A DNA stretch of 64,000 nt, taken from contig NZ_CAMLJP010000001.1 in NCBI RefSeq assembly GCF_946480385.1, positions 124,001-188,000 on the forward strand, written 5' to 3'. This document shows, piece by piece, positions 16,887 through 57,968 of the stretch. The notes below the pieces were generated by a model. That model worked only from the letters and a program-made list of their open reading frames with translations. It ran no database searches and was not told the DNA's origin. The position numbers were made by a program, and so were the translations under genes. Origin of the DNA: an uncultured Azospirillum sp. Its GTDB lineage: Bacteria; Pseudomonadota; Alphaproteobacteria; Azospirillales; Azospirillaceae. Position 1 is the stretch's first letter. Every line of letters begins with the position of its first letter.

Positions 16887-18121
16887 GTGCCCTCCTGATA
16901 CGGCTTTTCGGCCCGCCAGAGCGTGACCGGCATGGCGGCGCGCCAGCCGCGGAAGCCGCCGACCGCCGAGGCGCGGGCCACCGCGATCTGGGTCAGCTCG
17001 CCTCCCAGCCGCTTGTGCACGTCGATCAGCACCGCCTCGCTTTCCAGCGTCACCGCATTGGCGGCGATCCGGCCGCCGGGAGGCAGGGCGTCCCAGCAGG
17101 CCTCCAGCACGCCGTCCGTGGTCAGCCCGCCGCCGATGAAGATGGCGTCGGGCCGCTCCAACCCGCCCAGTGCCGCTGGGGCCTTGCCGCGCGCCAGCGC
17201 CAAGCCGGGCACGCCGAAGGTCGCGGCGTTGGCAAGAATGCGGGCGATGCGGTCCGGGTGATGTTCGACGGCGATGGCGCGGTTGGCGGGATCACGCAGC
17301 ATCCATTCGATGCCGATCGACCCCGACCCGGCGCCGACATCCCACAGCAGCTCGCCCCGGCGCGGCGCCAGGAAGGACAGGGTGACGGCGCGCACCTCGC
17401 GCTTGGTGATCTGGCCGTCATGCTCGAACCAGTCGTCGGGCAGGCCGGGGGCCAGCGGCAGGATGCGGGCGCCGGGGGCGGCGACGCAGTTCAGAGCGAT
17501 GGTGTTGAGGTCGGCGACCCGCTCTGCGCTCCAGGCATCGGCGGTCGCATCCTGCCGGGCTTCGCGCGGGCCGCCCATCGCCTCCAGCACCGTCAGGCGC
17601 GAGGCGCCGAAGCCGCGGGCGCGCAGCAGGGCGGCGAGCTTGGCCGGAGTCGTTCCGTCCCAGGAAAGAAGCAGCAGCTTGCAGTTCGGGTGCAGATGCG
17701 GAACGACCTGCTCAAGCGGTCGGCCATGGACGGTCAGGCACCGGCAGTCCTGCACCGGCCAGCCCAGCCGGGATGCGGCGAGGCTGAAGGCGGAAGCGGC
17801 CGGGATCACCGTCGTTTCCGCAGCCGGAACGAGCCGCGACAGCGTTGCGCCCACCCCGTACCAGGACGGATCGCCGCTGGCCAGCACGCAGACCCGCTGC
17901 CCGCGCCGGGCAATCAGGCCGGGGAAGGCATCGGTCATCGGCGACGGCCAGGGCAGCCGTTCCTGTCCCGCAACGACCGGCACGAGATCGAGGTGGCGGG
18001 CGCCGCCATAGAGGATTGTCGCGCCTTCGACCGCCGCTCGGGCTGCAGGCGACAAACCGTCCCAGCCATCCTCGCCGATGCCGACGATGGTGAGCCAGCG
18101 GGCGGTTCCCGTGCTATCCAT
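16874..18121 (-). CDS. cobL: Precorrin-6Y C5,15-methyltransferase (decarboxylating) CobL
   Basis: 415 residues, a CbiE-CbiT fusion. The N-terminal CbiE-like methylase (about 8-210) has 'LTIVGIGEDGWDGLSP', 'VLASGDPSWYGVGATL' and 'CRCLTVHGRP'. The C-terminal CbiT-like domain (about 230-400) has the SAM loop 'LLWDVGAGSGSIGIEWML' and 'AIFIGGGLTTDG'-like strands. It methylates C5 and C15 and removes the ring C acetate carboxyl. Start ATG 18121 is adopted. The frame continues upstream only over the divergent cobK 5' region. Confidence 0.95.
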   Translation of the reverse strand: MDSTGTARWLTIVGIGEDGWDGLSPAARAAVEGATILYGGARHLDLVPVVAGQERLPWPSPMTDAFPGLIARRGQRVCVLASGDPSWYGVGATLSRLVPAAETTVIPAASAFSLAASRLGWPVQDCRCLTVHGRPLEQVVPHLHPNCKLLLLSWDGTTPAKLAALLRARGFGASRLTVLEAMGGPREARQDATADAWSAERVADLNTIALNCVAAPGARILPLAPGLPDDWFEHDGQITKREVRAVTLSFLAPRRGELLWDVGAGSGSIGIEWMLRDPANRAIAVEHHPDRIARILANAATFGVPGLALARGKAPAALGGLERPDAIFIGGGLTTDGVLEACWDALPPGGRIAANAVTLESEAVLIDVHKRLGGELTQIAVARASAVGGFRGWRAAMPVTLWRAEKPYQEGTWTA

Positions 18122-18167
18122 GGCGCCGATCCTGACGGGTGGGGAGGGGGAATTGGTCAAGGTGCTG

Positions 18168-18908
18168 ATGGTCAAAGTACTGATCCTGGGCGGCACGACG
18201 GAGGCGACGGCGCTGGCAAAACGGCTGGCCGGCCATCCGCGCATCGACGCCCGCGTGTCGCTGGCCGGCCGCACGAAGAACCCGGTGCTGCCGCCGCTGC
18301 CGACCCGTATCGGCGGCTTCGGCGGGGTGGAAGGCTTGGCCGATTACCTGCGCGCCGAGGGGATCGGCGCGGTGATCGATGCGACCCATCCCTTTGCGGA
18401 CCAGATCTCCGCCAATGCCGCCGTGGCCTGCGCGCGGGTCGGCGTGCCGTTGCGCCTGCTGACCCGGCCGGCCTGGGTGGCGGGGCCGGGCGACCGCTGG
18501 ATCGGCGTGCCGGACATGGATGCGGCGGCGCTGGCCTTGCGCGACCTGGGCGACACCGTGTTCCTGACCATCGGCCGGCAGGAGGTCGCGGCCTTCGAGG
18601 CGATGCCCGACAAACGCTACCTGATCCGTGCCGTCGATCCGCCGGAGCCGATGCCGGCGCTGCCGCACATGAGCCTGATCCTCGACCGCGGGCCGTTCAC
18701 CCTGGAGGGCGAACTGGCGCTGATGCGCGGGGAACGGATTGAGGTCGTGGTGAGCAAGAACAGCGGCGGACGCGCCACCGATGCGAAGCTGGAGGCCGCA
18801 CGGGAATTGGGCCTGCCGGTGGTGATGGTGGAGCGGCCGGCGGGCAACGGTGTGGCGGAACTGCACGACGTGGGCGAGGCGGTGGAGTGGCTGGAGGGGA
18901 TGGGCTGA
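18168..18908 (+). CDS. cobK: Precorrin-6A reductase CobK
   Basis: 246 residues from ATG 18168. The N terminus 'VLILGGTTEATALAKRLAG' is the NADPH-binding start typical of CobK/CbiJ. It is followed by 'VIDATHPFADQISANAA', 'LRLLTRPAW', 'DTVFLTIGRQEVAAF' and 'VVSKNSGG'. It reduces precorrin-6A to precorrin-6B, just before the CobL step. TTG 18153 with a strong GGGGAGGGG site is an alternative start. The codons at 18156-18185 contain a near-perfect 15-base duplication around these starts. It is divergent from cobL. Confidence 0.93.
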   Translation: MVKVLILGGTTEATALAKRLAGHPRIDARVSLAGRTKNPVLPPLPTRIGGFGGVEGLADYLRAEGIGAVIDATHPFADQISANAAVACARVGVPLRLLTRPAWVAGPGDRWIGVPDMDAAALALRDLGDTVFLTIGRQEVAAFEAMPDKRYLIRAVDPPEPMPALPHMSLILDRGPFTLEGELALMRGERIEVVVSKNSGGRATDAKLEAARELGLPVVMVERPAGNGVAELHDVGEAVEWLEGMG

Positions 18909-19056
18909 CTCCTCTCCCCGCGGAATCACCCTCTCCCCCCCAGGGAGAGGGGCGGGGTGAGGGGGATGCATTCCGGGATTTTCGCAAAAGTCCTGCGGCG
19001 CGTCCCCCTCACCCAGCCCTCTCCCCAGGGGGGAGAGGGCTGCTCGCGGCGGATTG
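18908..19056. repeat. C/G-rich paired-palindrome interspersed repeat, copy 1
   Basis: Two imperfect hairpins facing each other between the ends of cobK and cobJ. The first arm (about 18901-18965) pairs 'CCCTCTCCCCCCCAGGGAG' with the following GGGGCGGGGTGAGGGGG. The second (about 19003-19045) has CCCCCTCACCCAGCCCTCTC with 'GGGGGGAGAGGGC'. Four more elements of the same architecture occur at about 21713, 25975, 31590 and 57838. Here it sits between two convergent genes, where it could also help end transcription. Confidence 0.75.
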
Positions 19057-19072
19057 GTCGTCACGCCCATCC

Positions 19073-19831
19073 TCACCCCCGATAATGCCGGGGCGTATAC
19101 ACCCAGCGCCCGCCATCAGCCTTGGGTACGAACCGCGTGTGCGAGGCGCCGATGATGACCAGCGTGCGCATGTCCGCCTGCTCCGCCCGCACCTCTCCCA
19201 GCGTGGTGACGGTCAGTTCCTCATCCGCGCGACCCACGGCGCGGCCCAGCACGATCGGGGTCTCGGGCGCACGTATGTCGCGCAGGGCGTCGAAAGCCGC
19301 CCCCAGCTGCCAGGGCCGGGCGCGGGAGATCGGGTTGTAGAGCGCGATGACGAAATCCGCCTCCGCCGCCAGACGCAGGCGCCGCAGCACCACCTCCCAC
19401 GGCTTCAGATTGTCCGACAGGGAGATGGCGCAGAAATCATGCCCCAGCGGCGCCCCGGCCCGCGCCGCGGCGGCTTGCATCGCGGACACGCCGGGATCGA
19501 CCGACAGCGGAACCGCATGCCACGCCTCGGGAGCGTCGGGATCGTCCAGCGCCTCGAAGATGGCGGCGGCCATGGCGAAGATACCGGGGTCGCCGCCCGA
19601 CACCACCGCCACCCGCCGGCCCTGCGCCGCCAGATCCAGCGCGAAACGGGCGCGGTCCAGTTCCACCCGGTTGTCGGAGGCGTGGCGCACCTGATTGCCC
19701 GGCGGCACGCGCTCGACATAGGGGAAATAGCCGACGAGGTCGGTCGCCTCGGCCAGATCGCGCCGGGCCTCCGGCGTCAGCCATTCCTCAGGTCCAGGGC
19801 CAAGGCCCACCACTTTAAGCCAGCCGCTCAT
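19073..19831 (-). CDS. cobJ: Precorrin-3B C17-methyltransferase CobJ
   Basis: 252 residues of the tetrapyrrole methylase fold: 'LKVVGLGPGPEEWLTPEA', 'VAVVSGGDPGIFAMAAA', 'DFVIALYNPISRARPWQL' and 'LVIIGASHTRFV'. In the aerobic pathway it methylates C17 with ring contraction of precorrin-3B made by CobG. ATG 19831 overlaps the cobI stop (ATGA); the open frame upstream of this is only antisense noise within cobI. It is the last gene of the long riboswitch-led run cbtB-cbtA-cobW-cobN-cobG-cobH-cobI-cobJ. Confidence 0.95.
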   Translation of the reverse strand: MSGWLKVVGLGPGPEEWLTPEARRDLAEATDLVGYFPYVERVPPGNQVRHASDNRVELDRARFALDLAAQGRRVAVVSGGDPGIFAMAAAIFEALDDPDAPEAWHAVPLSVDPGVSAMQAAAARAGAPLGHDFCAISLSDNLKPWEVVLRRLRLAAEADFVIALYNPISRARPWQLGAAFDALRDIRAPETPIVLGRAVGRADEELTVTTLGEVRAEQADMRTLVIIGASHTRFVPKADGGRWVYTPRHYRG

Positions 19832-20571
19832 CCGCGCTTTCCCTCGCCCGGAATGACGATCTGGGAGAAGTAGGGGGCGACGTCCGGCGCCTCCAGGAAG
19901 GGCATGAAGCGCTGTTCGTCCATGCTGGCGCGCTCCACATACCACGCCCGTTCGGCCAGCCCGGCGGCGGCGATGGCGCGGCGGACCTTCGGCAGGTTCT
20001 GGCCCAGCTTCATCACCACGCAGGCATCGGCGGCAGTCAGGGCGCGGACCAGCGCCGCCTCGTCCAGCGTGCCGGGAATCACCGACAGCACGTCGTCGCG
20101 CAGCATCAGCGGGCGCGGCAGCAGGGACGCGCTGCACACCATGCTGGTGACGCCGGGAATGACCTCCGAGCGGAAGCGGCCGGACAGCCGCAGAAACAGA
20201 TGCATGAAGGAGCCGTAGAAGAACGGATCCCCCTCGTTCAATGCCGCGACGGAGCGGCCGGCGGCGAGATGCTCCGCGATGCGCTCGGCCGATTCGTCGA
20301 AGAAGGCCTCGATCTGGCGGCCATAGTCGGGGTGGGTCGGCGGCAGCTCCACCGTCACCGGATAGACCATCGGCAGCTCGATCTGGTCAGGCCTGATGGC
20401 CTGATCGGCGATGCGGCGGGCTTGGCCCCTGGTGCCGCGCTTGCAGAAATAGGCGACGACCGGGCAGGCGCCGATGGTGCGCACCGCCTTCAGCGTCATC
20501 AACTCCGGATCGCCGGGCCCGACGCCGACGCCGAACAGGGTGCCGGGGGTGGGGGAGGTCTCGCCGCTCAT
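19828..20571 (-). CDS. cobI: Precorrin-2 C20-methyltransferase CobI
   Basis: 247 residues: 'LFGVGVGPGDPELMTLKA', 'VAALNEGDPFFYGSFMHL', 'VIPGVTSMVCSASLLPRPL' and 'ACVVMKLGQNLPKVRRAI'. It transfers the C20 methyl group to precorrin-2, giving precorrin-3A, the substrate of CobG. Both ends overlap neighbours at ATGA (cobH upstream, cobJ downstream). The chosen ATG 20571 matches the family length. Confidence 0.95.
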   Translation of the reverse strand: MSGETSPTPGTLFGVGVGPGDPELMTLKAVRTIGACPVVAYFCKRGTRGQARRIADQAIRPDQIELPMVYPVTVELPPTHPDYGRQIEAFFDESAERIAEHLAAGRSVAALNEGDPFFYGSFMHLFLRLSGRFRSEVIPGVTSMVCSASLLPRPLMLRDDVLSVIPGTLDEAALVRALTAADACVVMKLGQNLPKVRRAIAAAGLAERAWYVERASMDEQRFMPFLEAPDVAPYFSQIVIPGEGKRG

Positions 20572-21206
20572 TCGACGTCGCTCGCCAGGGCGTTGACGGC
20601 GGCTGCGGCCATGGCGCTGCCGCCGCGCCGGCCCCGGATCGCCAGATAGGGCACGCCGAAGGGGTTCTCGGCCAGGGCATCCTTGCTTTCCATCGCGCCG
20701 ACGAAGCCGACGGGGAAGCCCAGGATCGCCGCCGGTTTCGGCGCACCGGCCGCCAGCATCTCCAGCAGGTAGAACAGCGCGGTCGGCGCGTTGCCGATGG
20801 CGACCACCGATCCGCCCAACCGGTCGCCCCACAGGTCCAGCGCCGCGGCGGAGCGGGTGTTGCCGATGCTCTTGGCCAAATCCGGCACGGCGGGATCGCG
20901 GAGCGTGCAGACCACCGCATTGTCGGCCGGCAGGCGGGCGCGGGTCACGCCATGGGCGACCATCTCGCTGTCGCAAAGGATCGGCGCGCCCGATCGCAGG
21001 GCCATACGGGCGGCGCTGCCGACATCGGTGGAGAACAGCAGGTCCTGGGTCGCATCGACCATGCCGCAGGCGTGGATGACGCGCACCGCCACCGGCTTCA
21101 GGTCGTCGGGGATGGCGGACAGGTCGGCCTCCGCCCGGATGGTGGCGAAGGACTGGCGGTAGATGGCCGCTCCGTCGCGGATATAGTCGTAGAGCGGCTC
21201 AGGCAC
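20568..21206 (-). CDS. cobH: Precorrin-8X methylmutase CobH
   Basis: 212 residues with the CobH/CbiC pattern: 'YDYIRDGAAIYRQSFATIR', 'VRVIHACGMVDATQDL' (catalytic His), 'ILCDSEMVAHGVTRARLP' and 'ILGFPVGFVGAMESKDAL'. It moves the C11 methyl group to C12, producing hydrogenobyrinate. Its start overlaps the end of cobG by 8 bases, and its stop overlaps cobI at ATGA. Confidence 0.96.
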   Translation of the reverse strand: MPEPLYDYIRDGAAIYRQSFATIRAEADLSAIPDDLKPVAVRVIHACGMVDATQDLLFSTDVGSAARMALRSGAPILCDSEMVAHGVTRARLPADNAVVCTLRDPAVPDLAKSIGNTRSAAALDLWGDRLGGSVVAIGNAPTALFYLLEMLAAGAPKPAAILGFPVGFVGAMESKDALAENPFGVPYLAIRGRRGGSAMAAAAVNALASDVE

Positions 21207-22545
21207 CGGTGGACTCCTCGGTCAACAGATCCGCGACGCGGGCCACGGCGTCGGCGGGAGACAGGCCGGTATGCGGGGCGGCATCACCGGGTTTGGCGTT
21301 CAGGGCGACGTCATACACGCCGTCGCGGGCGGTCAGGGTGACATCGGCGATGGCGGGATGGGCGCAGCCCTTGGCGCAGCCCGACACATGCACCATTCGG
21401 ACATGGTCCAGCAAGGGGCCTGCGCGCTCGGCGATGGCGAGCGCCGTCGCATGGGTGTCAGTGGTGCCGACATCGCAGCCGCCGGCCCCGCTGCAGGCGG
21501 TCAGTTTCAGCCGGCGGTCGGTGTGCGAAAGGATGGCGCCGTGGGCTTCGGCGATGTGCTGTGCGTCCGCGGACGGAGCGTCGAGGAGCAGCGCGCGCCA
21601 GGGGGTGATGCGGATCTCGGCGCAGGCGGCGGCGAGGGCCGCGAGGGTCTCGGCGGTCAGACGGCCGAAGGGGAAGGCGGTTGTGAGAAAGGCCGGCGTC
21701 TCCCCAACGCGGGATCCCTTCTCCCCCCCGGGGAGAAGGTTAGGATGAGGGGGTTCGGCGGAGCCGAAGACATCCATGAGGTGCGGCACTTGCCCCCACC
21801 CCGGCCCTCCCCCGCTGGGCGGGGGAGGGGGTATCAGCGGGGAGAGGCGCTTGCCTATCTCCTCAATGCCGATTGCCGCGACCAAACCGGCCATGCGGCG
21901 CGGCGGCTCCGGCAGCGTCGCGCGCAACTCCAGAAACGCCCGCCCCAGCGCCGACGCCACGTCCGCCACATCCTCCACCCGGCACAGTCCCAGCGGCGCA
22001 GCCTTCGCCAACGTGCCGCCCAAGGACACCCGGAAGTGTTCCGCGTCCAGCGCGTCGAAGCGTACGTCCGTGCTGCTGGCCGCCAGATGCCCGATTCCGC
22101 CGCCGCAGACCAGCCAGCCAAACTTCGGCGGCAGGCCGTGCAGAGCAGTATCCTCGGCCAGCCGCGCGTCGAGCGTACGCGCCACCCCCCGTACGTTCAT
22201 CAGCGCGGTGGGATCCAGCCCGGCGGTGGGGGAGCACAGCACATTGCGCACTGCCTCGCTCGCCGCATCGGCGGAGACATAACCCATCGCGCGCAGGGCG
22301 TCGGTCACCGGCTCCAGCGCGTCGGCGGCGATGCCGCGAAGCTGCAGGTTGCCGCGCTGACTGAGGTCGATCAAACCGTTGCCGTAACGATCCCCCAACT
22401 CGGCGATGCGGCGGGCGTGTTCAGCCGACAGCACCCCAGCGGGGACGCGGACCCGCAGCAGGAACCCGTCGCCGACCTGCATCGGCGCCAGCACGCCGGG
22501 GCAGGTGCCGCGGCGTCTCGGCTGGGTGGTGACAGGGTTGGTCAT
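21199..22545 (-). CDS. cobG: Precorrin-3B synthase CobG with an in-frame repeat-derived insert
   Basis: 448 residues from ATG 22545 (ATGA overlap with cobN). It is an oxygen-dependent monooxygenase of the nitrite/sulfite reductase fold. The N-terminal half has 'GLIDLSQRGNLQLRGI' and 'PKFGWLVCGGGIG'. The C-terminal half has the iron-sulfur/siroheme-type Cys motif 'TACSGAGGCDVG' ... 'HVSGCAKGCAHP'. Between them, at about residues 236-285, is a Pro/Gly-rich segment ('LIPPPPPSGGGPGW', 'PPHPNLLPGGEKGS') encoded by an interspersed palindromic repeat (21713-21838). The frame is kept and the flanking motifs are intact, so the enzyme may still work; the insert falls at a domain linker. Confidence 0.93.
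   Translation of the reverse strand: MTNPVTTQPRRRGTCPGVLAPMQVGDGFLLRVRVPAGVLSAEHARRIAELGDRYGNGLIDLSQRGNLQLRGIAADALEPVTDALRAMGYVSADAASEAVRNVLCSPTAGLDPTALMNVRGVARTLDARLAEDTALHGLPPKFGWLVCGGGIGHLAASSTDVRFDALDAEHFRVSLGGTLAKAAPLGLCRVEDVADVASALGRAFLELRATLPEPPRRMAGLVAAIGIEEIGKRLSPLIPPPPPSGGGPGWGQVPHLMDVFGSAEPPHPNLLPGGEKGSRVGETPAFLTTAFPFGRLTAETLAALAAACAEIRITPWRALLLDAPSADAQHIAEAHGAILSHTDRRLKLTACSGAGGCDVGTTDTHATALAIAERAGPLLDHVRMVHVSGCAKGCAHPAIADVTLTARDGVYDVALNAKPGDAAPHTGLSPADAVARVADLLTEESTGA
21713..21838. repeat. Paired-palindrome interspersed repeat, copy 2, inside cobG
   Basis: Same architecture as the intergenic copies: a CTTCTCCCCCCCGGGGAGAAG hairpin at about 21719-21739 followed by GGTTAGGATGAGGGGG, a short unique centre, then TTGCCCCCACCCCGGCCC, and a second hairpin around CCCTCCCCCGCTGGGCGGGG (about 21808-21827). 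It lies wholly inside cobG without stop codons in the cobG frame, and accounts for the Pro/Gly-rich insert of the protein. Confidence 0.85.
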
Positions 22546-25500
22546 GCTGCGGTCTCCCGGAGGCGCCGCAGATCCTCCGCGGTGGAGTTGCGGCGGGGAT
22601 GCCACATACCGCGGTCGAGCGCCTCGCTCATGCGCGCCAGAATGTGCCGGGCGGCGGCAGGATTGGCATGCGACAGGAAGTCCCACACCTCCTCATCCTC
22701 GACGTACGCGTCATACAGCTGGTCGAAATGGGCGGGACGTACGGCGTCGGTGGTGGCGGCGAAGGCGAACAGCGTGTCGACGCCGGCCGCCAGTTCCGCC
22801 GCCCCGCGATAGCCGTGGCGCATCATGCCCTGGATCCAGCGCGGGTTGGCCGTCCGGCCGCGCAGGGTGCGGGCGATCTCCTCCGCCAGGGTGCGGACCG
22901 CGAGTTTTTCCGGATCGGCGCTGTCGAGATGGTAAAGCGCCGGTTCGGAGTCCTCCAGCGCCGCCGCCGCCGCGAACCCGCCCTCGAACTGCATGAAGCC
23001 GTCGGTGGACAGCACGTCATGCTCGCGCTGGTCCTGGTGGTGGACAAGGGCGTCGGCGCCGCCGACCCGGCGGCGGAACAGGGCCGGCAGCGGCACCCCC
23101 TCCAGCCCGGCGCCATAGGCGTGACAGCCGCCCTCAAGATAGGCGGCGCCGAAATCGGCCCGCGCGGTCCAGTCGCCGCGCGCGATCATGCCGGACAACG
23201 CCGTGCCGTAGATTCCGGGGGCGGCGCCGAAAATGCGGGCAGTGGCCCAGCGGCGGGCGTCCTCGGCAGTGGTGCCGGATGCTGCAAGGCGCTGTTCCTC
23301 GGCCCGCGCGGTGGTGGCCAGCGGGTTGGTGTCGTCGGGCTCGTCCAGCCCGGCGACGGCGCGCACCGCCTGATCGAACAGGGCGATCTGCTGCGGGAAG
23401 ACGTCGCGGAACAGGCCGGAGATGCGCAGCGTCACGTCCACACGGGGGCGGCCGATCACGCCGGCCGGCATGATCTCATAGCCGGTGACGCGGCCGGAGC
23501 CGTTCTCCCAGATCGGGCGGACGCCGAGCAGGGCGAGCGCCTGGGCCAGCTCGTCGCCGCCGGTGCGCATGGCGGGCGTGCCCCAGCAATCCACCACCAG
23601 CCGGCGCGGCCAGTCACCATGGTCTTGCAGATAGCGGGTGATCAGCGCGTCCGCCGCCTGCCAGCCCAGCGTCCAGGCGGTCGGCGTCGGCACGCCGCGC
23701 GGATCGAGCGCATAAAGGTTGCGCCCAGTCGGCAGCGTATCCGCCCGTCCGCGCGCCGGCGAGCCGCCGGGGCCGGGGCGGACGAAACGACCGTCCAGCC
23801 CGTCGAGCAGCGCCCGCATCTCCGCCTCGCCGCAAGCATCGACAGCGGTGGCGACAGCAATCGGATCGGCGGTGCGGGCGACGGCGACGGTCAGGCGGTC
23901 GCGGCGCTCGCCGGTCGGGCTGTGGCCGAAGACATGCAGGCCGTCGCGGATCTGCAGTTCCTTGATGTCGCAGAGATGAGCGTCCAGCCGCGACAGGATG
24001 GCGTCGGGATCGTCGTCGGGGCGCAGGTTGCAGTCGGCGGCGACGCCGGATTTCCAGGCGAGGTCGAGGATCGTCTCGCGCAGCATGCCCAGCCGCCGCG
24101 GGTCGAGGCCGGTCGCCTGCGAATACTCGTCGATGGCGGTTTCCAGCGCGGCGAGGTCGCCGTAGAGGCCGGATTCCACCGGAGGCGGGGTCAGGTGGCC
24201 GATCAGAACGGCGCCCAGGCGGCGGCGGGCCTGCACGCCCTCGCCGGGGTTGTTGACGATGAAGGGATAGAGGGTCGGCAGGGCGCCGCCGACGATCTCC
24301 GGCCAGCAGTCGGCCGACAGCGCCACCGCCTTGCCCGGCAACCATTCCAGCGTGCCATGGGCGCCGATCTGCACCAGGGTATGGATGCCGGCCGCATGGC
24401 GCAGCCACAGGTAAAAGGCGAGATAGCCGTGGCTGGGGGGCGTATCGGGATCGTGGTGCTGGGCAGTGGTCAGGGCACCGTGGCCGCGGCTGGGCTGTAC
24501 CGCCACCATCGCGTTGCCACAGGGCAGAATTCGGAAGGCGAAGACGCCATCGTGGCAGGCGGGATCGGCGGCGGGCTCGCCCCAGGTCTCGGTGATACGG
24601 GCGCGCAGATCCGGCGGAGCGAGGCATTCGTACTCGGCCAGCGACAGGGTCGGGGTGGGGGCGGCGGTCAGTGCCGCCATCAGTTCGGCGGCGCTGTCCG
24701 GGACGGCGGACAGGCCGTAGCCTTCGGCGGACAGGCGCTGGAGCATCGCGATGGTGCTGGCCGGGCTGTCGAGGCCCACCGCATGGCCGATGCCACCGCC
24801 GGGGCCGGGATAATCGGACAGCACCAGCGCCACGCGGCGCTCCGCCCGCGGGGTGCGGGACAGGCGGACCCAGCTTGCCGCGAGATCGGCGGTGAAGGCC
24901 ACCCGGTCGGGGATCGGGCGCAGAGTGGGCGCGGCGAATTGCAGGTCGGGGTCGGGGGCGCCCGCCGTCTTGAAGGCGATGGCGCGGGCGATGATGCGGC
25001 CGTCCATTTCCGGCAGCACGACGTTCATCGCGAGGTCGGATGGTCCCAACCCGCGCGATGAGGCCTGCCAGCCGGTTTCCGGCGTGGTGGAGAGGATGGC
25101 CTGCAGGACCGGGCTGCCATTCGCCTCCAGCGGCGAACCGTCGTCGCGTGCGGCCGAGAAGGCGGTGGTGTTGACGACCACGGCGGCGTTCTGCGCGGTC
25201 AGGCTGGCGCGCATCCAGGCAGCGCAGTCCGGCTCCTTCAGGCTGGCGACGAACAGCGGGCGGGGGGCGAGGCCACGGGCGGCCAGCGCGTCGCACAAAG
25301 CATGGACCGGGGCGAGGTCTCCGGCCAGCAGGTGGGAACGGTAGAAGACGACGGCGGCAGTCGGGGCGTCGGCGGGTGTGGGGCCGCTCCAGCCGTCATA
25401 GGCGCCGAATCGCGGCACCGGGGCGGGGTCGTCATGGGGCAGGGGCATCCCGGCCAGCGTCGCGGCGCAGGCCAGCAGATGGGCCATGTTGGCCGGGCCG

Positions 25501-25934
25501 CCCTCGGTGAAGTAGCGCCACAGGCGGTCGGCGGTCTCGGATGGGATGGTGCCGTAGGCGGTGAGATTCGGGTCGGGCTGTGCCTCTCCCGGCAGGACGG
25601 CCAGCAGGATGTTGCGTTCACGGCAGAGGGCGGAGAGGCGGTCGAGGCCGTAGCGCCAGTAGCCGCTGCCGCCGAGCAGGCGCAGGACCACCAGTTTCGC
25701 CTTGGCAACGATGTTCTCGGCGTAGAGGTCGACCGACAGCGGGTGGCCGAGCCGGTTGAGGTTGGCAAGGCGGAGGCTGGGCAAGCGGTCGCGTGCCGCC
25801 TGCCACGCGGCGGCGAGCGCGGTCAGGTCGCTGTCGGAGAAGGACAGCACGACGAGGTCGGCCGGCGTCTGCCCCAGATCTTCCGCCTGGGGGCCGGCGT
25901 CCAGTTCGTCCTGGCGGGCGGCGAGCAGGTGCAT
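22542..25934 (-). CDS. cobN: Cobaltochelatase large subunit CobN
   Basis: 1130 residues of the CobN/BchH family: 'LVVLRLLGGSGYWRYGL' (about 75-92), 'LVQIGAHGTLEWLPGKAV' (mid, metal-chelatase core), 'YPFIVNNPGEGVQARRR', 'VDCWGTPAMRTGGDELAQ' and, near the C terminus, 'LYDAYVEDEEVWDFL'. It inserts Co2+ into hydrogenobyrinate a,c-diamide with ATP, together with CobS/CobT or ChlI/D-type partners that are not in this window. It is somewhat shorter than the ~1270 residues of the Pseudomonas denitrificans protein. Its stop overlaps the start of cobG. A repeat separates it from cobW upstream. Confidence 0.96.
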   Translation of the reverse strand: MHLLAARQDELDAGPQAEDLGQTPADLVVLSFSDSDLTALAAAWQAARDRLPSLRLANLNRLGHPLSVDLYAENIVAKAKLVVLRLLGGSGYWRYGLDRLSALCRERNILLAVLPGEAQPDPNLTAYGTIPSETADRLWRYFTEGGPANMAHLLACAATLAGMPLPHDDPAPVPRFGAYDGWSGPTPADAPTAAVVFYRSHLLAGDLAPVHALCDALAARGLAPRPLFVASLKEPDCAAWMRASLTAQNAAVVVNTTAFSAARDDGSPLEANGSPVLQAILSTTPETGWQASSRGLGPSDLAMNVVLPEMDGRIIARAIAFKTAGAPDPDLQFAAPTLRPIPDRVAFTADLAASWVRLSRTPRAERRVALVLSDYPGPGGGIGHAVGLDSPASTIAMLQRLSAEGYGLSAVPDSAAELMAALTAAPTPTLSLAEYECLAPPDLRARITETWGEPAADPACHDGVFAFRILPCGNAMVAVQPSRGHGALTTAQHHDPDTPPSHGYLAFYLWLRHAAGIHTLVQIGAHGTLEWLPGKAVALSADCWPEIVGGALPTLYPFIVNNPGEGVQARRRLGAVLIGHLTPPPVESGLYGDLAALETAIDEYSQATGLDPRRLGMLRETILDLAWKSGVAADCNLRPDDDPDAILSRLDAHLCDIKELQIRDGLHVFGHSPTGERRDRLTVAVARTADPIAVATAVDACGEAEMRALLDGLDGRFVRPGPGGSPARGRADTLPTGRNLYALDPRGVPTPTAWTLGWQAADALITRYLQDHGDWPRRLVVDCWGTPAMRTGGDELAQALALLGVRPIWENGSGRVTGYEIMPAGVIGRPRVDVTLRISGLFRDVFPQQIALFDQAVRAVAGLDEPDDTNPLATTARAEEQRLAASGTTAEDARRWATARIFGAAPGIYGTALSGMIARGDWTARADFGAAYLEGGCHAYGAGLEGVPLPALFRRRVGGADALVHHQDQREHDVLSTDGFMQFEGGFAAAAALEDSEPALYHLDSADPEKLAVRTLAEEIARTLRGRTANPRWIQGMMRHGYRGAAELAAGVDTLFAFAATTDAVRPAHFDQLYDAYVEDEEVWDFLSHANPAAARHILARMSEALDRGMWHPRRNSTAEDLRRLRETAA

Positions 25935-25969
25935 GGTTTGACGTCCAGGGGGGCGGCGGCGCCCCTCCC

Positions 25970-26092
25970 TCCCACGGCTACGCCGCGGGTCCCTCCCTCC
26001 CCCTCTTCGAGGGAGAGGGGAAGATTTGCAGAGCGGCAGCAGTTCCCTCTCCCACCGAAGGTGGGGGAGGGTTAGGGAGGGGGCATACGCCG
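25970..26092. repeat. Paired-palindrome interspersed repeat, copy 3, between cobW and cobN
   Basis: The second half (about 26043-26087) contains CCCTCTCCCACCGAAGGTGG followed by GGGAGGGTTAGGGAGGGGGCA. This is nearly identical to the second half of copy 4 at about 31699-31738. The first half has CCCTCCCTCCCCCTCTTCGA with GGGAGAGGGG. It is the only long gap inside the riboswitch-led operon, so it may affect expression of cobN and downstream genes relative to cbtBA-cobW. Confidence 0.85.
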
Positions 26093-26106
26093 CAACATCC
26101 TAACTC

Positions 26107-27168
26107 TTACCCAACAACCGCCCTGGTCACCGCATCACGGTCCAGCCCGGTCTCGCCGATCACCACCAGACGGCTGCGGCGCTCCTCGTCGGGCTTCCAC
26201 AGGCGGTCGTAGTGGGTCTGGATTCGGGTGCCGACGCCCTGGACCAGCAGGCGCATCGGCTTGCCGGGCACGTCGATGAAGCCCTTCAGACGGAGCACGC
26301 CATGCAGGCCGGCGACCTTCTCCAGCGTCATCGCCAGAGCGGCGGGGTCGGACTGCGACGGCAGTTCCACCACGAAGCTGGTGAAGTCGTCGTGGTCGTG
26401 GCCCTCTTCGTCGTCATGATGACTGGGACGGTTGGCGAGGTCGTCCTCCACCGCCGCACCGACGCCGAGCAGGACCAGCGGATCGACGGCGCCCTGGGAG
26501 GCGCGGACCAGCTTGGCGTCACGGCCGACCGTGTGGTTCAGCGCGCCGCGGATCAGCTCCTCGACACGGGCGAGGTCGCCGGCGGCGACCAGATCGGTCT
26601 TGTTGACGACGATCAGGTCGGCGCAGAGCAGCTGGTCCTCGAACACTTCTTCGATCGGCGTTTCGTGATCGACGGTGCCGGCGGCGTCGCGCTGGGCTTC
26701 CAGCGCGGCAGGATCGGGGGCGAAACGACCCTCCGCCGCCGCCGCGGCATCCACCACGGCGATGACGCCGTCGACGGTGACGCGGGTCTTGATCGCCGGC
26801 CAGTGGAAGGCCTGGACCAGCGGCTTCGGCAGGGCGAGACCGCTGGTCTCGATCACGATGTGCTCGGGCGGCTCCGGCCGGGCCAGCAGCTTTTCGATGG
26901 CCGGGACGAAGTCGTCGGCGACGGTGCAGCACAGGCAGCCGTTCGCCAGCTCGATCACGTCGTCTTCGGTGCAGGTTGGGTTGCCGCAGGCGCGCAGGAT
27001 GTCGCCGTCGATGCCAACGTCGCCGAACTCGTTGATGATGAGGGCCAAGCGTCGGCCGTCGGCCTTTTCCAGCAGGCCACGGATCAGCGTGGTCTTGCCG
27101 GCACCGAGGAAGCCGGTGATGACGGTCGCCGGAACCTTGCCGGCGGCCGTTTTCGCAAGTGCGGACAT
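26107..27168 (-). CDS. cobW: CobW-type G3E GTPase (metal chaperone)
   Basis: 353 residues. Walker A is 'VITGFLGAGKTTLIRGLL' (residues ~16-33), the metal-binding CxCC is in 'ANGCLCCTVADDF', the GTP specificity motif in 'LIVVNKTDLV', and a His/Asp-rich loop 'HHDDEEGHDHDD' lies near residue 250. The C-terminal CobW_C domain follows (about 258-350). CobW proteins are thought to deliver cobalt for cobalamin synthesis. It lies between cbtA and cobN, which agrees with handing cobalt to the chelatase. Confidence 0.95.
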   Translation of the reverse strand: MSALAKTAAGKVPATVITGFLGAGKTTLIRGLLEKADGRRLALIINEFGDVGIDGDILRACGNPTCTEDDVIELANGCLCCTVADDFVPAIEKLLARPEPPEHIVIETSGLALPKPLVQAFHWPAIKTRVTVDGVIAVVDAAAAAEGRFAPDPAALEAQRDAAGTVDHETPIEEVFEDQLLCADLIVVNKTDLVAAGDLARVEELIRGALNHTVGRDAKLVRASQGAVDPLVLLGVGAAVEDDLANRPSHHDDEEGHDHDDFTSFVVELPSQSDPAALAMTLEKVAGLHGVLRLKGFIDVPGKPMRLLVQGVGTRIQTHYDRLWKPDEERRSRLVVIGETGLDRDAVTRAVVG

Positions 27169-27180
27169 GGGCTTGTTTCC

Positions 27181-27942
27181 TTAACGCGCGCCGGGCTGGA
27201 CCCGCAGGGCCGGGCGGGACTCGGTCTCGCGGACCAGACCGCTCATCAGCCAGCCGCAGGCCGAGCCCAGGATCGCCCAGAACAGGGCGGCCCCGCCAAG
27301 AGAGGCGGTGACGAAGCGGGCGGCCAATTCCGGCGGAACCGCACCTTCGGCGCTTTCCGGATGGGGCGCGCCGATCAGATGGGGCAATGCTGCGGCCAGG
27401 ATGGCGGCGGCGACGACCAGACGGTTGCGGGCGAAGGCGAGCGCGGCCATGCCGACGCCGGCCCCGGCGGCGGCGGACAGCCACCAGAGCTGACGAAGCT
27501 CAAGCTCCGCCCCGGCCATGCCCGGCAGTTCGGGGGCCAAGCCGAAGGACGGCGCCAGCGAGACGGCGACGAAGCCGCCCATGCCCCACACCAGCCCGCG
27601 CCGCGCATCGACCGGCCGGCCGGCCAGCAGGATCCCCGCCCCCAACAGCAGCGCATAGGCGACACCGGTCAGCAGGTTGGCGACGATGGTCAGGCCGATG
27701 CGCTGCATCGCCTCGTCCAGCGTCGTCGGCACCCCTTCGCCGATCTCGCGCACGGGACCGTGCTGGTGCGCAGTCGCGCCGGCAGGCGCCACCGAAGGCG
27801 CCGGAGGCGGAGTGACCACCTCGTATTTCTCGGCTTCGAGGATCAGCGGGACGGTCGTCGCCTGCTGAACGACGGACGCGGCCGTGCCGGAGAGCACGCC
27901 CGCGACCAAAGCGGCTGTGAACAGCCGCCGGATCAGATCCAT
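27181..27942 (-). CDS. cbtA: Cobalt transporter subunit CbtA
   Basis: 253 residues, an inner-membrane protein with about six hydrophobic segments ('LFTAALVAGVLSGTAASVV' at the N terminus, 'LTIVANLLTGVAYALLLGAG', 'GLVWGMGGFVAVSLAPSFGL', 'WWLSAAAGAGVGMAALAFA' and a final 'FWAILGSACGWLMSGLV'). Gly/Pro-containing helices such as 'LAPSFGLAPELPG' are typical of CbtA. ATG 27942 is used; the frame extends upstream through cbtB only as noise. It acts with CbtB in B12-regulated cobalt uptake, a predicted system. It lies 12 bases before cobW. Confidence 0.92.
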   Translation of the reverse strand: MDLIRRLFTAALVAGVLSGTAASVVQQATTVPLILEAEKYEVVTPPPAPSVAPAGATAHQHGPVREIGEGVPTTLDEAMQRIGLTIVANLLTGVAYALLLGAGILLAGRPVDARRGLVWGMGGFVAVSLAPSFGLAPELPGMAGAELELRQLWWLSAAAGAGVGMAALAFARNRLVVAAAILAAALPHLIGAPHPESAEGAVPPELAARFVTASLGGAALFWAILGSACGWLMSGLVRETESRPALRVQPGAR

Positions 27943-27952
27943 GACCCGCTGC

Positions 27953-28147
27953 TTAGTGGCAGGGGAACGCGAAGGAATGACGCGTGTCGTGGGCCGCGTC
28001 GTGGATCTGCTGCGGCTGGGCGAAGCCGACGCCGTACAGCAGGAAGCTGCCGAGCAGGATCGCGGCGAAGGCGGCGACCGCGGTCTGGGCGGCGCTGCGG
28101 GTCGCGGAACCGGCGGCATTCATGGAATGAGTGGTCATCGAAGACAT
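27953..28147 (-). CDS. cbtB: Cobalt transporter subunit CbtB
   Basis: 64 residues with one transmembrane helix ('AAFAAILLGSFLLYGVGFAQ') and a C-terminal His-containing tail ending 'DTRHSFAFPCH', the CbtB hallmark. It is the first gene after the cobalamin riboswitch. ATG 28147 has GGGAG about 8 bases upstream; ATG 28138 is an alternative. The ribosome site lies in a hairpin (28157-28174). Confidence 0.92.
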   Translation of the reverse strand: MSSMTTHSMNAAGSATRSAAQTAVAAFAAILLGSFLLYGVGFAQPQQIHDAAHDTRHSFAFPCH

Positions 28148-28154
28148 CCTTGCT

Positions 28155-28174
28155 CTCCCGCCACACCCGGCGGG
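28155..28174 (-). promoter_or_regulatory. Hairpin enclosing the cbtB ribosome-binding site
   Basis: On the minus strand CCCGCC-GGGTGT-GGCGGG forms a 6-bp GC stem whose 3' arm runs into the GGGAG that serves cbtB. It lies between the riboswitch B12 box and the start codon, the place expected of a ligand-dependent sequester stem. There is no U tract, so translational control is favoured over termination. Inferred by eye. Confidence 0.6.
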
Positions 28175-28198
28175 GTTGGGAAAGGTTGGTACGTCCGT

Positions 28199-28395
28199 CG
28201 GCAGGTTTCCTGGCTCGCGGGTCGCCGCATCGCCGTCCGCCTTCCCGGCCCATAAAGGACCAGTGGCATGATGGACGGGACGCTCGCCGCTTACAGTTGC
28301 GGGGGCAGCCGCGGCATTGGCGCTTCCAAAGAAGCACCGCACCGCATTCCCTATTATCCCCGCCGCCCGTCAGGACGGGCAGGGCACCGTCGGAC
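28199..28395 (-). ncRNA. Cobalamin (AdoCbl) riboswitch upstream of cbtB
   Basis: Minus-strand order matches the conserved cobalamin element: GGTGCC (about 28383-28388), GGGATAATAGGGAATGCGGTG, the core GCTGCCCCCGCAACTGTAAG (about 28290-28309), CCACTGG (about 28259-28265) and the B12 box GAGCCAGGAAACCTGCC (28201-28217). All signature blocks are present in order. It controls cbtB-cbtA-cobW-cobN-cobG-cobH-cobI-cobJ, repressing cobalt uptake and corrin synthesis when cobalamin is abundant. Confidence 0.95.
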
Positions 28396-28504
28396 GGCCA
28401 CCATCGCAGTGCCGCGCGCGTTTGGCAAGCCCACAATAAGGCGTCTGCCGCACGGACGATCTTGCGCACCGACATTTTGGATGCTGTCATGTTTGGCGGA
28501 CAGA

Positions 28505-28530
28505 GTGTCCGGAAATCCGACACTTTCCGG
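28505..28530 (+). promoter_or_regulatory. Dyad-symmetric candidate activator site upstream of livG
   Basis: CCGGAAA-N8-TTTCCGG (28509-28530) is a perfect 7-bp inverted repeat. It overlaps GTGTC-N9-GACAC (28505-28523). It lies about 95 bases before the candidate sigma-54 -24 element, the usual distance for an enhancer-binding protein. The sigma-54 activator gene at 34045 directly follows this transporter operon. The pairing is inference. Confidence 0.5.
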
Positions 28531-28620
28531 TGCTGAGGTGAGCGATTGGATAGAGGGCGCCGCAGCAAAACCGGAGGAGAAACAACGGGGCCGGGGCCCC
28601 GATCGAAGCGAACCCGGCCG

Positions 28621-28635
28621 TGGCACGCTTCGTGC
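28621..28635 (+). promoter_or_regulatory. Candidate sigma-54 (-24/-12) promoter of the liv operon
   Basis: TGGCACGCTTCGTGC matches TGGCAC-N5-TTGC at every fixed position but one (G for the first T of the -12 block), with correct spacing between the GG and GC. It is about 90 bases before the ATG of livG, leaving a leader of roughly 80 bases. Confidence 0.55.
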
Positions 28636-28725
28636 GTACAACAATAGGTGAAACGTCCCGCCGCATGGCGGCTCCTGGGCTCGAAGCCCGGTCATAAGGA
28701 CGAACGGGAGGAGAATTCGCGACCG

Positions 28726-29485
28726 ATGAACGCCGCACCGAACGACGACATCATCCTGGAAGCGCGCAACCTGACGAAGGAGTTCAAGGGGTTCGTGGCG
28801 GTGAAGGAGGTGAACCTGCAGGTTCGCCGCGGCACCATCCACGCGCTGATCGGCCCGAACGGCGCCGGCAAGAGCACGGTGTTCAACCTGCTGACCAAGT
28901 TCCTGACGCCGACGCGCGGCCAGATCCTCTACAAGGGCCGCGACATCACCCGCACCAAGCCGGCCGACATCGCGTTGATGGGGCTGGTGCGCTCCTTCCA
29001 GATCTCGGCCGTCTTCCCGCATCTCAGCGTGCTGGAGAATGTCCGCGTCGCCTTGCAGCGGCCGCTCGGCACCAGCTTCCATTTCTGGAAGTCCGAATCG
29101 TCGCTCTACGACCTGCATCACCGGGCGCTGGAGCTGATCGAGGCGGTGAACCTCACCCCCTGGGCCGGCCACACCGCCGCCGAACTGCCCTATGGCCGCA
29201 AGCGCGCGCTGGAGATCGCCACCACGCTGGCGCTCGACCCGGAGGTGATGCTGCTCGACGAGCCGCTGGCCGGCATGGGCCATGAGGACATCGAGGGCAC
29301 GGCGGCTCTCATCAAGCGCGTCGCCGCCGACCGCACCGTGCTGATGGTGGAGCACAACCTGTCGGTCGTCGCCCACCTGTCGGACACCATCACCGTTCTG
29401 CGCCGCGGCGAGATCCTGGCGGAGGGGCCGTACGAGGTCGTCTCCAAGAACCCGCAGGTGATGGAAGCATATATGGGGACCGGAC

Positions 29486-29493
<8 letters not shown>
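28726..29493 (+). CDS. livG: Branched-chain amino acid-type ABC transporter ATPase LivG
   Basis: 255 residues. Walker A is in 'ALIGPNGAGKSTVFNLL', the signature region 'ELPYGRKRALEIATTLAL' replaces LSGGQ, as is usual for LivG, and Walker B is 'PEVMLLDEPLAGMG'. The H-loop is in 'MVEHNLSVVAHL'. ATG 28726 follows GGGAGGAG. It is the first gene of livG-livF-binding protein-livH-livM; livF starts 8 bases before its stop. It powers uptake of an amino acid or amide-type solute; the exact substrate cannot be read from the sequence. Confidence 0.9.
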
Positions 29494-30208
<715 letters not shown>

Positions 30209-30361
30209 GGCGTCCAGCCATCTGACATCGCCGGCATGAACGTCGCCTTGGCCCGCAATTCGGGGCCGGGGCGGCGAACTGCCGCAGCTTGCCCGATTAC
30301 GGCCACAGGGACCCGCGAAGGGAACCGGCCGACAATAAAACCAAGAGGGAGAGACCTTCTG

Positions 30362-31570: not shown

Positions 31571-31587
31571 GGGGGCGGGCGCATCTT

Positions 31588-31738
31588 GCTCCCTCCCTAA
31601 CCCTCCCCCGCTCTCGGCCGGCCGAAGGCCGGTCCGATCGAGGGAGAGGGGACTGCCGCCGCTTCGGCATTTACGTTTCGCTGACAAGCGTCCTGCCCCC
31701 TCTCCCACCGAAGGTGGGGGAGGGATGGGGAGGGGGCA
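31588..31738. repeat. Paired-palindrome interspersed repeat, copy 4, inside the liv operon
   Basis: First half: CTCCCTCCCTAACCCTCCCC then GATCGAGGGAGAGGGG, with an inner GGCCGGCCGAAGGCCGG hairpin. Second half: CCCCTCTCCCACCGAAGGTG then GGGGAGGGATGGGGAGGGGGC, nearly the same as in copy 3. It lies in the 229-base gap between the binding-protein gene and livH. Such a structure could stabilise the upstream mRNA and so give more binding protein than permease. Confidence 0.85.
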
Positions 31739-31798
31739 ACGGCGGCAACCACTTACCAAAACCAAAAACAACACCAACGAACCGGGAGAAATGCGGAG

Positions 31799-32686
31799 AT
31801 GGTCAGCCTGCTGGGAATCCCGCCCCAAGTGCTGTTCGGGCAGCTTCTGCTCGGCCTGATCAATGGGTCCTTCTATGCGCTGCTCAGCCTCGGGCTGGCG
31901 GTGATCTTCGGCATGTTGAACGTCATCAACTTCGCCCACGGCGCGCTCTACATGGTCGGCGCCTTTGTGGCGTGGCTGCTGCTGACCTATGCCGGCATCG
32001 GCTATTGGGGGGCGCTGGTGATCGCGCCGGTGGTCGTCGGGCTGCTCGGCATCGCGCTGGAAAAGACGCTGCTGTCGCGGCTCTACAAGCTGGACCATCT
32101 CTATGGGCTGTTGCTGACCTTCGGGCTGGCGCTGATCCTGGAGGGGGCGTTCCGCCACCAGTACGGCGTCTCCGGCCAGCCCTACCCGATTCCCGCAGCC
32201 CTCCAGGGCGGGCAGAATCTGGGCTTCATGTTCCTGCCCAACTATCGCGGCTGGGTCGTCGTCGCCTCGCTGGTCATCTGCTTCGGCACCTGGTTCGCCA
32301 TCGAGCGGACGAAGCTGGGCGCCTATCTGCGCGCGGCGACGGAGAACCCGACGCTGGTCCAGGCCTTCGGCATCAACGTGCCGGTGATGGTGTCGCTGAC
32401 CTACGGCTTCGGCGTGGCGCTGGCCGGGCTGGCCGGCGTGCTGGCGGCGCCGATCTATCAGGTGTCGCCACTGATGGGGACCAACCTGATCATCATCGTC
32501 TTCGCCGTGGTGGTGATCGGCGGCATGGGCTCGATCCTGGGCGCCATCGTCACCGGCCTCGGGTTGGGGATGCTGGAGGGGTTGACCAAGGTCTTCTATC
32601 CCGAAGCGTCCAACATCGTCGTATTCGTCGTGATGGCGATCGTCCTTCTCATCAAGCCCGCAGGCCTCTTCGGACGGGAGCGTTGA
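31799..32686 (+). CDS. livH: Branched-chain amino acid-type ABC permease LivH
   Basis: 295 residues, with about eight membrane segments. The N-terminal 'LLLGLINGSFYALLSLGLA' and 'VINFAHGALYMVGAFVAW' are the LivH hallmark. The EAA-like loop is at 'YLRAATENPTLVQAFGINV', followed by 'IIIVFAVVVIGGMGSILGA'. ATG 31799 has GCGGAG just upstream. It forms the membrane channel with LivM. Confidence 0.92.
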   Translation: MVSLLGIPPQVLFGQLLLGLINGSFYALLSLGLAVIFGMLNVINFAHGALYMVGAFVAWLLLTYAGIGYWGALVIAPVVVGLLGIALEKTLLSRLYKLDHLYGLLLTFGLALILEGAFRHQYGVSGQPYPIPAALQGGQNLGFMFLPNYRGWVVVASLVICFGTWFAIERTKLGAYLRAATENPTLVQAFGINVPVMVSLTYGFGVALAGLAGVLAAPIYQVSPLMGTNLIIIVFAVVVIGGMGSILGAIVTGLGLGMLEGLTKVFYPEASNIVVFVVMAIVLLIKPAGLFGRER

Positions 32687-57826: not shown

Positions 57827-57837
57827 GAGAGCGCCGA

Positions 57838-57968
57838 TTGCCCCCTCCCTAACCCTCCCCCGCCTTTGGCGGGAGAGGGAACTCCGCTGCTCTGGCACTT
57901 AACTCCCTCTCCCGCGATCGGACCGGCTCAGGCCGGCCGAGGGCGGGGGAGGGTTGGGGAGGGGGCAA
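57838..57968. repeat. Paired-palindrome interspersed repeat, copy 5, overlapping a gene end
   Basis: First half: CCCCTCCCTAACCCTCCCCC then GCCTTTGGCGGGAGAGGGAA. Second half: CTCCCTCTCCCGCGATCGG, an inner CCGGCTCAGGCCGG hairpin, then GGCGGGGGAGGGTTGGGGAG. It fills the space after the SDR gene and provides the last ~38 codons of the DUF3306 gene on the other strand. Confidence 0.87.

What the first reader, a model, noticed from the sequence alone, without database searches (positions are those of the whole stretch)
21199..22545. Interspersed palindromic repeat inserted in frame inside cobG
The only part of CobG that looks out of place is a Pro/Gly-rich stretch at about residues 236-285. It coincides exactly with a 126-base paired palindrome of the type found between genes at four other places in the window. 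The insert has no stop, keeps the frame, and falls between the two halves of the enzyme, with the Cys cluster intact. This is the situation described for Rickettsia palindromic elements, but here in an alphaproteobacterial vitamin enzyme.
Basis: partly seen in the sequence, partly recalled or inferred. Interest (0 to 1): 0.75.

Follow-up and report, generated by a model that had tools for sequence, protein, structure and literature searches.

The report
Triplex-type DNA repeat inside vitamin gene
A short palindromic DNA repeat that normally lies between genes sits in frame inside a vitamin B12 enzyme gene of an Azospirillum bacterium, where it would be read as a floppy linker between the enzyme's two halves, and in relatives it has been exchanged, duplicated and trimmed there with the reading frame kept.

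Summary
Window cobG (21199-22545, minus strand) carries, in frame between its two halves, a paired palindrome whose kin lie between genes at four other window sites. The genome is an Azospirillum of the lipoferum side. Each half is a hairpin plus purine-rich tail built like the intrastrand triplex motif (TM) of Holder et al. 2015, reported as always intergenic in E. coli K-12. It is not a Rickettsia palindromic element, and no RAYT link was found. The insert is old: 46 of 48 lipoferum-side CobG rows have it; the brasilense side has a differently arranged one. Within it synonymous sites are unusually conserved (fourfold third positions 16 of 17 invariant, against 88 of 143 elsewhere). Half-unit type and loop length switch repeatedly; an A. 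cavernae-type gene has an exact 84-nt tandem duplication with a hybrid middle hairpin. The same kind of doublet lies in frame in two more genes of relatives, a CobC-like phosphatase and the error-prone polymerase DnaE2, with full, single-hairpin and empty alleles. Best reading: TM doublets occasionally land in tolerant coding loops and keep recombining there, filtered for reading frame. Translation and activity are untested. Known repeat, known kind of event, apparently new combination.

The parts
21199..22545 (-). cobG, precorrin-3B synthase, 448 aa
   Evidence: TIGR02435 above cut-off
21714..21832 (-). TM-type doublet read in frame, about residues 238-278
   Evidence: half-unit model; relatives
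21789..21832 (-). left half-unit (type II): hairpin 21805-21829 and its tail, read PPPPPSGGGPGWGQ
21757..21788 (-). 32-nt spacer between the two half-units
21714..21756 (-). right half-unit: tail and hairpin 21717-21739, read EPPHPNLLPGGEKG; lies in the opposite orientation to the left half
22542..25934 (-). cobN, overlaps the cobG start by 4 bases; no gap in which a repeat could lie
   Evidence: same overlap annotated in A. lipoferum 4B and A. oryzae
20568..21206 (-). precorrin-8X methylmutase gene, overlaps the cobG end by 8 bases
18927..19039 (.). intergenic TM doublet, orthologous doublets compared in 6 relatives; holds the window's one strict TM_ECO match
25990..26088 (.). intergenic TM-type pair
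31695..31741 (+). intergenic TM-type half-unit
57836..57882 (-). TM-type half-unit

Best explanation
A doublet of G/C-rich triplex-motif (TM) repeats, an abundant dispersed repeat of Azospirillum, became part of cobG in an ancestor of the A. lipoferum side of the genus, in the loop between the enzyme's two halves, where it would be read as a disordered Pro/Gly-rich linker. The gene stayed intact, and the repeat went on behaving as a repeat. Each hairpin is its own reverse complement, so the two hairpins of a doublet are also direct repeats of each other and of other TMs in the genome. Slippage or recombination between them duplicates or deletes one period, and exchange with other TMs swaps the half-unit type or the loop. 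Events that keep the reading frame survive. Shown by comparison: in-frame presence, inheritance, conservation of synonymous sites, switching of type and loop, a hybrid hairpin at an exact 84-nt duplication, and full, single-hairpin and empty alleles in two other genes. Inferred: that recombination or slippage does this, that the linker is translated and tolerated, and how the first doublet arrived.
For: Inheritance. Disordered linker between two confident halves. Third-position divergence, type II set of 4 and type I short set of 7: left half-unit 0.036 and 0.022, right half-unit 0.071 and 0.099, against N half 0.267 and 0.263 and C half 0.146 and 0.181, while amino-acid divergence in the half-units (0.07-0.27) is like that of the enzyme halves (0.09-0.15) or higher; residues just outside the element change fastest (0.29-0.62). 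Fourfold sites with fixed residue, element against rest of cobG, invariant/variable: 16/1 vs 88/55, 8/1 vs 54/63, 14/1 vs 92/62; p 0.0065, 0.016, 0.01, uncorrected. On a tree built without the linker, left type needs at least 7 and loop length at least 8 changes among 46 rows. Orthologous intergenic doublets look alike: conserved half-units, variable spacer and flanks, long loop gained in G001. G037 (A. cavernae type): exact 84-nt tandem copy, middle hairpin with arms CCGTCTCCCC/GGGGAGAGGG. CobC-like phosphatase: 4 full, 1 with an N between two hairpins, 2 single-hairpin, 5 without, of 12 read. DnaE2: about 11 with two hairpins, about 11 with one, 8 without, all 30 read in frame. 28 doublets in 2.0 Mb of G001 show no period preference modulo 3 (9, 7 and 12 for remainders 0, 1, 2).
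Against: No RNA, protein or activity data. No target-site duplication or exact insertion point could be read; adjoining codons diverge too fast. Many branches of the CobG tree are weak (41 of 93 under 80), so some switches may be tree error; starred branches alone force 2 to 4 changes per class. The synonymous-site test rests on 9 to 17 codons per set, and restricted to Pro/Gly codons the type I set is not significant (6/1 vs 22/26, p 0.1). Single hairpins in dnaE2 and the CobC-like gene could be separate insertions rather than collapsed doublets. Several right hairpins in cobG carry uncompensated changes (G008, G024, G025, G027), so neither homogenisation nor structure selection is strict. 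Two lipoferum-side rows (P0051, P0052) have lost or eroded the insert, and in G030 and G032 it is degraded.
Confidence: 0.72

Rival explanations
1. The hairpins are kept by selection for a structure in the cobN-cobG-cobH-cobI message or DNA (pausing, stability, gyrase or other binding). Because the genes overlap, the CobG linker is the only place where such a structure can sit.
For: Synonymous sites in the element are conserved. Neighbouring genes overlap by 4 and 8 bases. TM-type sequence lies in the same linker on both sides of the genus, in different order. TM pairs also recur at operon borders of the cob cluster.
Against: Losses and degraded copies (P0051, P0052, G030, G032), uncompensated stem changes, and the same behaviour of intergenic copies and of doublets in dnaE2 and the CobC-like gene, which are in other surroundings. 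Holder et al. found no hint of a general regulatory role in E. coli (passage).
Confidence: 0.15
2. The doublet is a REPIN-like non-autonomous element moved by a RAYT-type tyrosine transposase, and allele changes are repeated transposition and excision.
For: Inverted pairs dispersed as units (24 of 71 groups); PF01797 genes exist in 14 of 61 genomes searched, G001 included.
Against: PF01797 is absent from G008, G016 and G017, which are rich in copies; no half-unit near 10 PF01797 loci; no GTAG or CGTC tag seen by eye; the hybrid hairpin at the G037 duplication is a recombination or slippage product.
Confidence: 0.07
3. The segment is an ordinary low-complexity Pro/Gly linker of CobG, or an ORF or assembly artefact.
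For: The flanking linker residues are fast-evolving, and assemblies do stumble here (N in G012).
Against: DNA matches to dispersed copies in 7 of 8 relatives searched, two hairpins with mirror tails, inheritance in dozens of independently sequenced CobG rows, intact CobG model score and cysteines.
Confidence: 0.03

Closest known systems
G/C-rich intrastrand triplex motif TM / TM_ECO (Holder et al. 2015, PMC4666352; outline, found passages and section 15 seen)
   Same: Hairpin of about 10 bp, 3-nt second loop (TTA, CCG, TCG) and mirror-symmetric purine tail; occurs in inverted pairs; abundant; sites vary, and inverted pairs can lose parts so that a stem-loop remains (their 'palindrome effect')
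   Different: Reported as always intergenic in E. coli K-12 MG1655; here in frame inside conserved genes and kept across a clade. The cobG right half has a T:A stem pair with A in the tail, the left half a longer G/C stem; neither meets the strict E. coli consensus
Rickettsia palindromic elements (passages seen in PMC2229807 and PMC3733652)
   Same: Palindromic repeats read in frame inside conserved proteins, also present between genes
   Different: Different sequence and host; 19 reading frames were reported for the first RPE (PMC2229807 passage), whereas here 1-2 of 82 repeat groups in 2.0 Mb of G001 are in frame; the unit here is a triplex-type doublet
GTAG and CGTC REPs inside genes (PMC3733652; found passages seen, part of the abstract among them)
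   Same: REP dimers adding 20-30 residues to proteins, many of them replication and repair proteins (DnaE2 would fit)
   Different: No GTAG or CGTC tag seen by eye; the word Azospirillum does not occur in that text
REPINs with RAYT transposases (PMC3116915, search listing only)
   Same: Inverted repeat pairs dispersed as units
   Different: No RAYT link found here

Membership tests
Triplex motif (TM) | Hairpin stem 6-15 nt, loops 1-6 nt, third strand mirror-symmetric to the purine arm (search rules as given in PMC4666352) | tested here: met
   By eye on the sequence: right half CCTTCTCCCC-CCC-GGGGAGAAGG-TTA-GGATGAGGGG; left half CCCTCCCCCGC-CCA-GCGGGGGAGGG-CCG-GGGTGGGGGC; one T opposite A in each. 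The ITxF program itself was not run
Triplex motif (TM) | Strict E. coli TM_ECO consensus | tested here: not met
   one strict match in the window, in the 18927-19039 group, none in the cobG element; 24 strict matches in 2.0 Mb of G001. So the cobG copy is TM-type, not TM_ECO in the strict sense
Triplex motif (TM) | Stem pair and third-strand base change together | tested here: met
   45 Azospirillum genomes at one position: C:G with tail G 1806, C:G with A 9, T:A with G 1, T:A with A 187 (summed). Two spreading subfamilies would give the same table, so this supports but does not prove triplex constraint
Triplex motif (TM) | Folds as a triplex (CD, NMR, footprint) | not testable with these tools
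   -
Rickettsia palindromic element | RPE sequence family with a CGTC end (PMC3733652 passage), in Rickettsia | tested here: not met
   No CGTC end seen by eye; host is Azospirillum. No alignment to RPE sequences was made
Rickettsia palindromic element | Works like one: palindromic repeat in frame inside conserved genes and also between genes | tested here: met
REPIN/RAYT | Cognate tyrosine transposase in copy-rich genomes, flanked by the repeat | tested here: not met
   PF01797 absent from G008, G016 and G017, which are rich in copies; no half-unit within about 1.5 kb of 10 PF01797 loci
REPIN/RAYT | Inverted pair of short palindromes | tested here: met
   24 of 71 groups are tail-to-tail pairs

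The most novel reading that the evidence does not exclude
TM doublets in coding loops act as self-adjusting linker cassettes: hairpin-mediated slippage adds or removes about 28-30 codons, and exchange with genomic copies rewrites the linker, faster than point mutation would. Azospirillum would thus carry hypervariable but frame-safe linkers in at least three conserved enzymes (CobG, a CobC-like phosphatase, the error-prone polymerase DnaE2), a source of protein length variation within populations.
Probability: 0.3. Interest if true: 0.8.

Novelty: new variant of a known kind. Interest (0 to 1): 0.62.

Why it matters
Palindromic repeats read inside proteins are known from Rickettsia and some REP families. 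Here a triplex-type repeat, reported as intergenic in E. coli K-12, lies in frame in conserved enzymes, and a series of alleles (empty, single hairpin, doublet, exact duplication with a hybrid hairpin, long loop) is laid out across one genus. That makes the turnover mechanism directly testable, and offers a natural case in which DNA-level conservation overrides synonymous drift inside a gene.

Tried and rejected
Rickettsia element: rejected on host and by eye on sequence. RAYT-driven REPIN: PF01797 search and flank scan gave no link. Rfam on window 18000-32500: one match above its gathering score, the cobalamin riboswitch at 28183-28406; 23 matches below theirs, nearly all microRNA models on the G/C-rich palindromes, taken as chance. 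Papers: RIME1 search 0 papers; Azospirillum with palindromic and repetitive extragenic 17 papers, none on this by title and abstract start; Azospirillum with triplex or palindromic repeat 417 papers, 8 listed, none on this by title; Azospirillum with precorrin-3B synthase and insertion 0 papers. Most subscription literature is not held. The first nhmmer attempt with single queries was too insensitive and was replaced by a half-unit model. The protein search with the type II linker found only CobG (24 hits), which suggested uniqueness; the type I linker then found five phosphatases among 42 hits, so that idea was dropped. These searches cover only candidate lengths of about 245-780 aa and one reading frame, so further host genes may exist. 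Compensatory change in cobG stems was looked at by eye only; uncompensated changes were seen. In one search a frame at C7:359132 was open but had near-zero coding scores and one search showed a gene end there; not counted as coding. The 20 cob-cluster loci and 30 element loci were chosen for likeness to cobG or its element and are no unbiased sample. Dropped rows: 5 of 49 loci without linker anchors; 4 of 16 CobC-like loci unread; 1 of 31 dnaE2 loci unread; of 120 protein rows 24 are not in the tree (7 without anchors, 17 beyond P0103).

Full report
What is there. Window cobG (21199-22545, minus strand) encodes a 448-residue precorrin-3B synthase without a stop that passes the CobG cut-off of NCBIfam. 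Between its halves lies an inverted pair of repeat units at 21714-21832, each a perfect hairpin with a purine tail, the tails facing each other across a 32-nt spacer. Four other groups of such units lie in the window.

Where it is from. The best relatives are Azospirillum of the A. lipoferum side. The window's own assembly is not held, so genome-wide counts come from G001 and other unnamed relatives.

How rare coding copies are. In 2.0 Mb of G001 the half-unit model found 82 groups. One (a single hairpin in a CobC-like gene) lies in frame inside a gene; one lies in an open frame that runs from the end of a RuvC-like sequence into a DUF559-like one and is unresolved; one more open frame was discounted; the rest were not open and coding-like on both sides. 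A first pass on 1.6 Mb plus the window found one of 71 (the window's cobG), while 47% of 2000 random positions in G001 were coding-like and open. The names RuvC and DUF559 are recalled from the look of the sequence, not from a call.

What the repeat is. The half-units are built like the intrastrand triplex motif of Holder et al. 2015 (PMC4666352; outline, passages and section 15 seen): stem, 3-nt second loop (TTA, TCG, CCG) and a mirror-symmetric tail. The strict E. coli consensus is met 24 times in 2.0 Mb of G001 and once in the window, but not by the two cobG halves, which are variants. At one variable position in 45 Azospirillum genomes the stem pair and the tail base go together: 1806 C:G with G and 187 T:A with A, against 9 and 1 mixed. 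This fits a three-strand constraint, but two spreading subfamilies would give the same table. Outside the genus the canonical pattern was found 30 times, in 6 of 55 genomes, and no match to the whole cobG element was found in sister-genus genome G046.

Age and site. 46 of 48 lipoferum-side CobG rows carry the insert; two have lost or eroded it. The brasilense side has TM-type sequence in the same linker with the half-units in the other order, so it is probably a separate event. Linkers of G011, G028 and G033 lack it, as does the Nitrospirillum row P0105. AlphaFold2 on the 53-row alignment gives both halves high confidence and residues 244-257 and 259-282 under 50.

How it evolves. Inside the element third codon positions diverge little (0.02-0.10 in the half-units, against about 0.26 in the N half and 0.15-0.18 in the C half), while amino acids differ about as much as elsewhere or more; the residues just outside change fastest. 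At fourfold sites with fixed residue the contrast is 16/1 vs 88/55, 8/1 vs 54/63 and 14/1 vs 92/62 invariant/variable (few codons, uncorrected; with Pro/Gly codons alone the type I set gives p 0.1). The left half comes as type I or type II, each with a short loop or with a loop about 60 nt longer that contains small palindromes. On a tree built without the linker these states need at least 15 changes among 46 rows (7 in type, 8 in loop), though many branches are weak. Orthologous intergenic doublets at the place of window 18927-19039 show the same pattern in six relatives, with the long loop gained in G001. So the coding copy behaves as the non-coding ones do.

Footprint of the mechanism. In the A. 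cavernae-type gene of G037 an 84-nt period is duplicated exactly, and the middle hairpin joins the left arm of the right hairpin to the right arm of the left one. A hairpin reads alike on both strands, so the two hairpins of a pair are also direct repeats; slippage or unequal exchange between them gives this product and its reciprocal, a single hairpin. This step is inference from the products.

Other genes. Searching with the type I linker found five histidine phosphatases (P0121-P0125) with the same doublet. Their Pfam match stops just before the insert, at about profile position 138 of 194, and the piece after it resumes with the conserved TH.GV.R stretch. The best NCBIfam model is alpha-ribazole phosphatase CobC, below its cut-off, hence 'CobC-like' (three of the five scanned). 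Of 12 alleles read at DNA level 4 are full, 1 has an N between two hairpins, 2 keep one hairpin and 5 have none. The scan of loci also found the doublet, in two relatives, in the error-prone DNA polymerase DnaE2 (NF004225 above cut-off; found). Of 30 dnaE2 alleles read all are in frame: about 11 with two hairpins, about 11 with one, 8 without, four of these short and clean (G001, G008, G010, G012). The sorting is by eye, for most alleles from the peptide. Holder et al. report in E. coli that inverted pairs can lose parts so that a stem-loop remains (passages), which is what the single-hairpin alleles look like.

Frame filter. 28 doublets in 2.0 Mb of G001 show no preference for periods divisible by three (9, 7 and 12 for remainders 0, 1 and 2), and 27 of 28 have at least one of six frames open. 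Coding alleles are in frame in 43 of 44 (cobG), 11 of 12 (CobC-like) and 30 of 30 (dnaE2); both exceptions are G012, with an N in the stretch.

Gene context. cobG overlaps cobN by 4 bases and the methylmutase gene by 8, in the window and in two annotated relatives, so a hairpin needed inside this operon could only lie in a coding stretch. That keeps the functional-structure rival alive, though losses, uncompensated stem changes and the dnaE2 alleles speak against a strong need.

Verdict. A TM-type doublet lies in frame in a vitamin enzyme; it works like a Rickettsia palindromic element, is not one, and is part of a wider habit of this genus. Insertion, inheritance and turnover are shown by comparison; translation, tolerance and the molecular mechanism are inferred.

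Noticed in passing
L233 (G001 C5:984406-984545): A RuvC-like frame runs without a stop through a TM doublet into a DUF559-like frame: C-terminal extension, fusion or chance read-through (names recalled).
   Followed up: partly
window 28183-28406 (-): Cobalamin riboswitch (RF00174, 126 bits) in the cob region.
   Followed up: no
L198, L184, L185, L202: A loop module about 60 nt long with two small palindromes swaps in and out of TM loops, in coding and intergenic copies; the CobG row P0030 seems to have it in the right half.
   Followed up: partly
L199, L252 (G012): An N stands in the element in both cobG and the CobC-like gene: assemblies seem to stumble at these hairpins, so frameshifts there should not be called pseudogenes.
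   Followed up: yes
L274-L303 and L063 (dnaE2 of relatives): Error-prone polymerase DnaE2 has doublets, single hairpins or neither in one loop, in frame in all 30 alleles read.
   Followed up: yes
cob cluster of 20 relatives (L202-L221): TM-type units recur at the same gene borders in many of the species, so intergenic copies also look old at their sites.
   Followed up: partly
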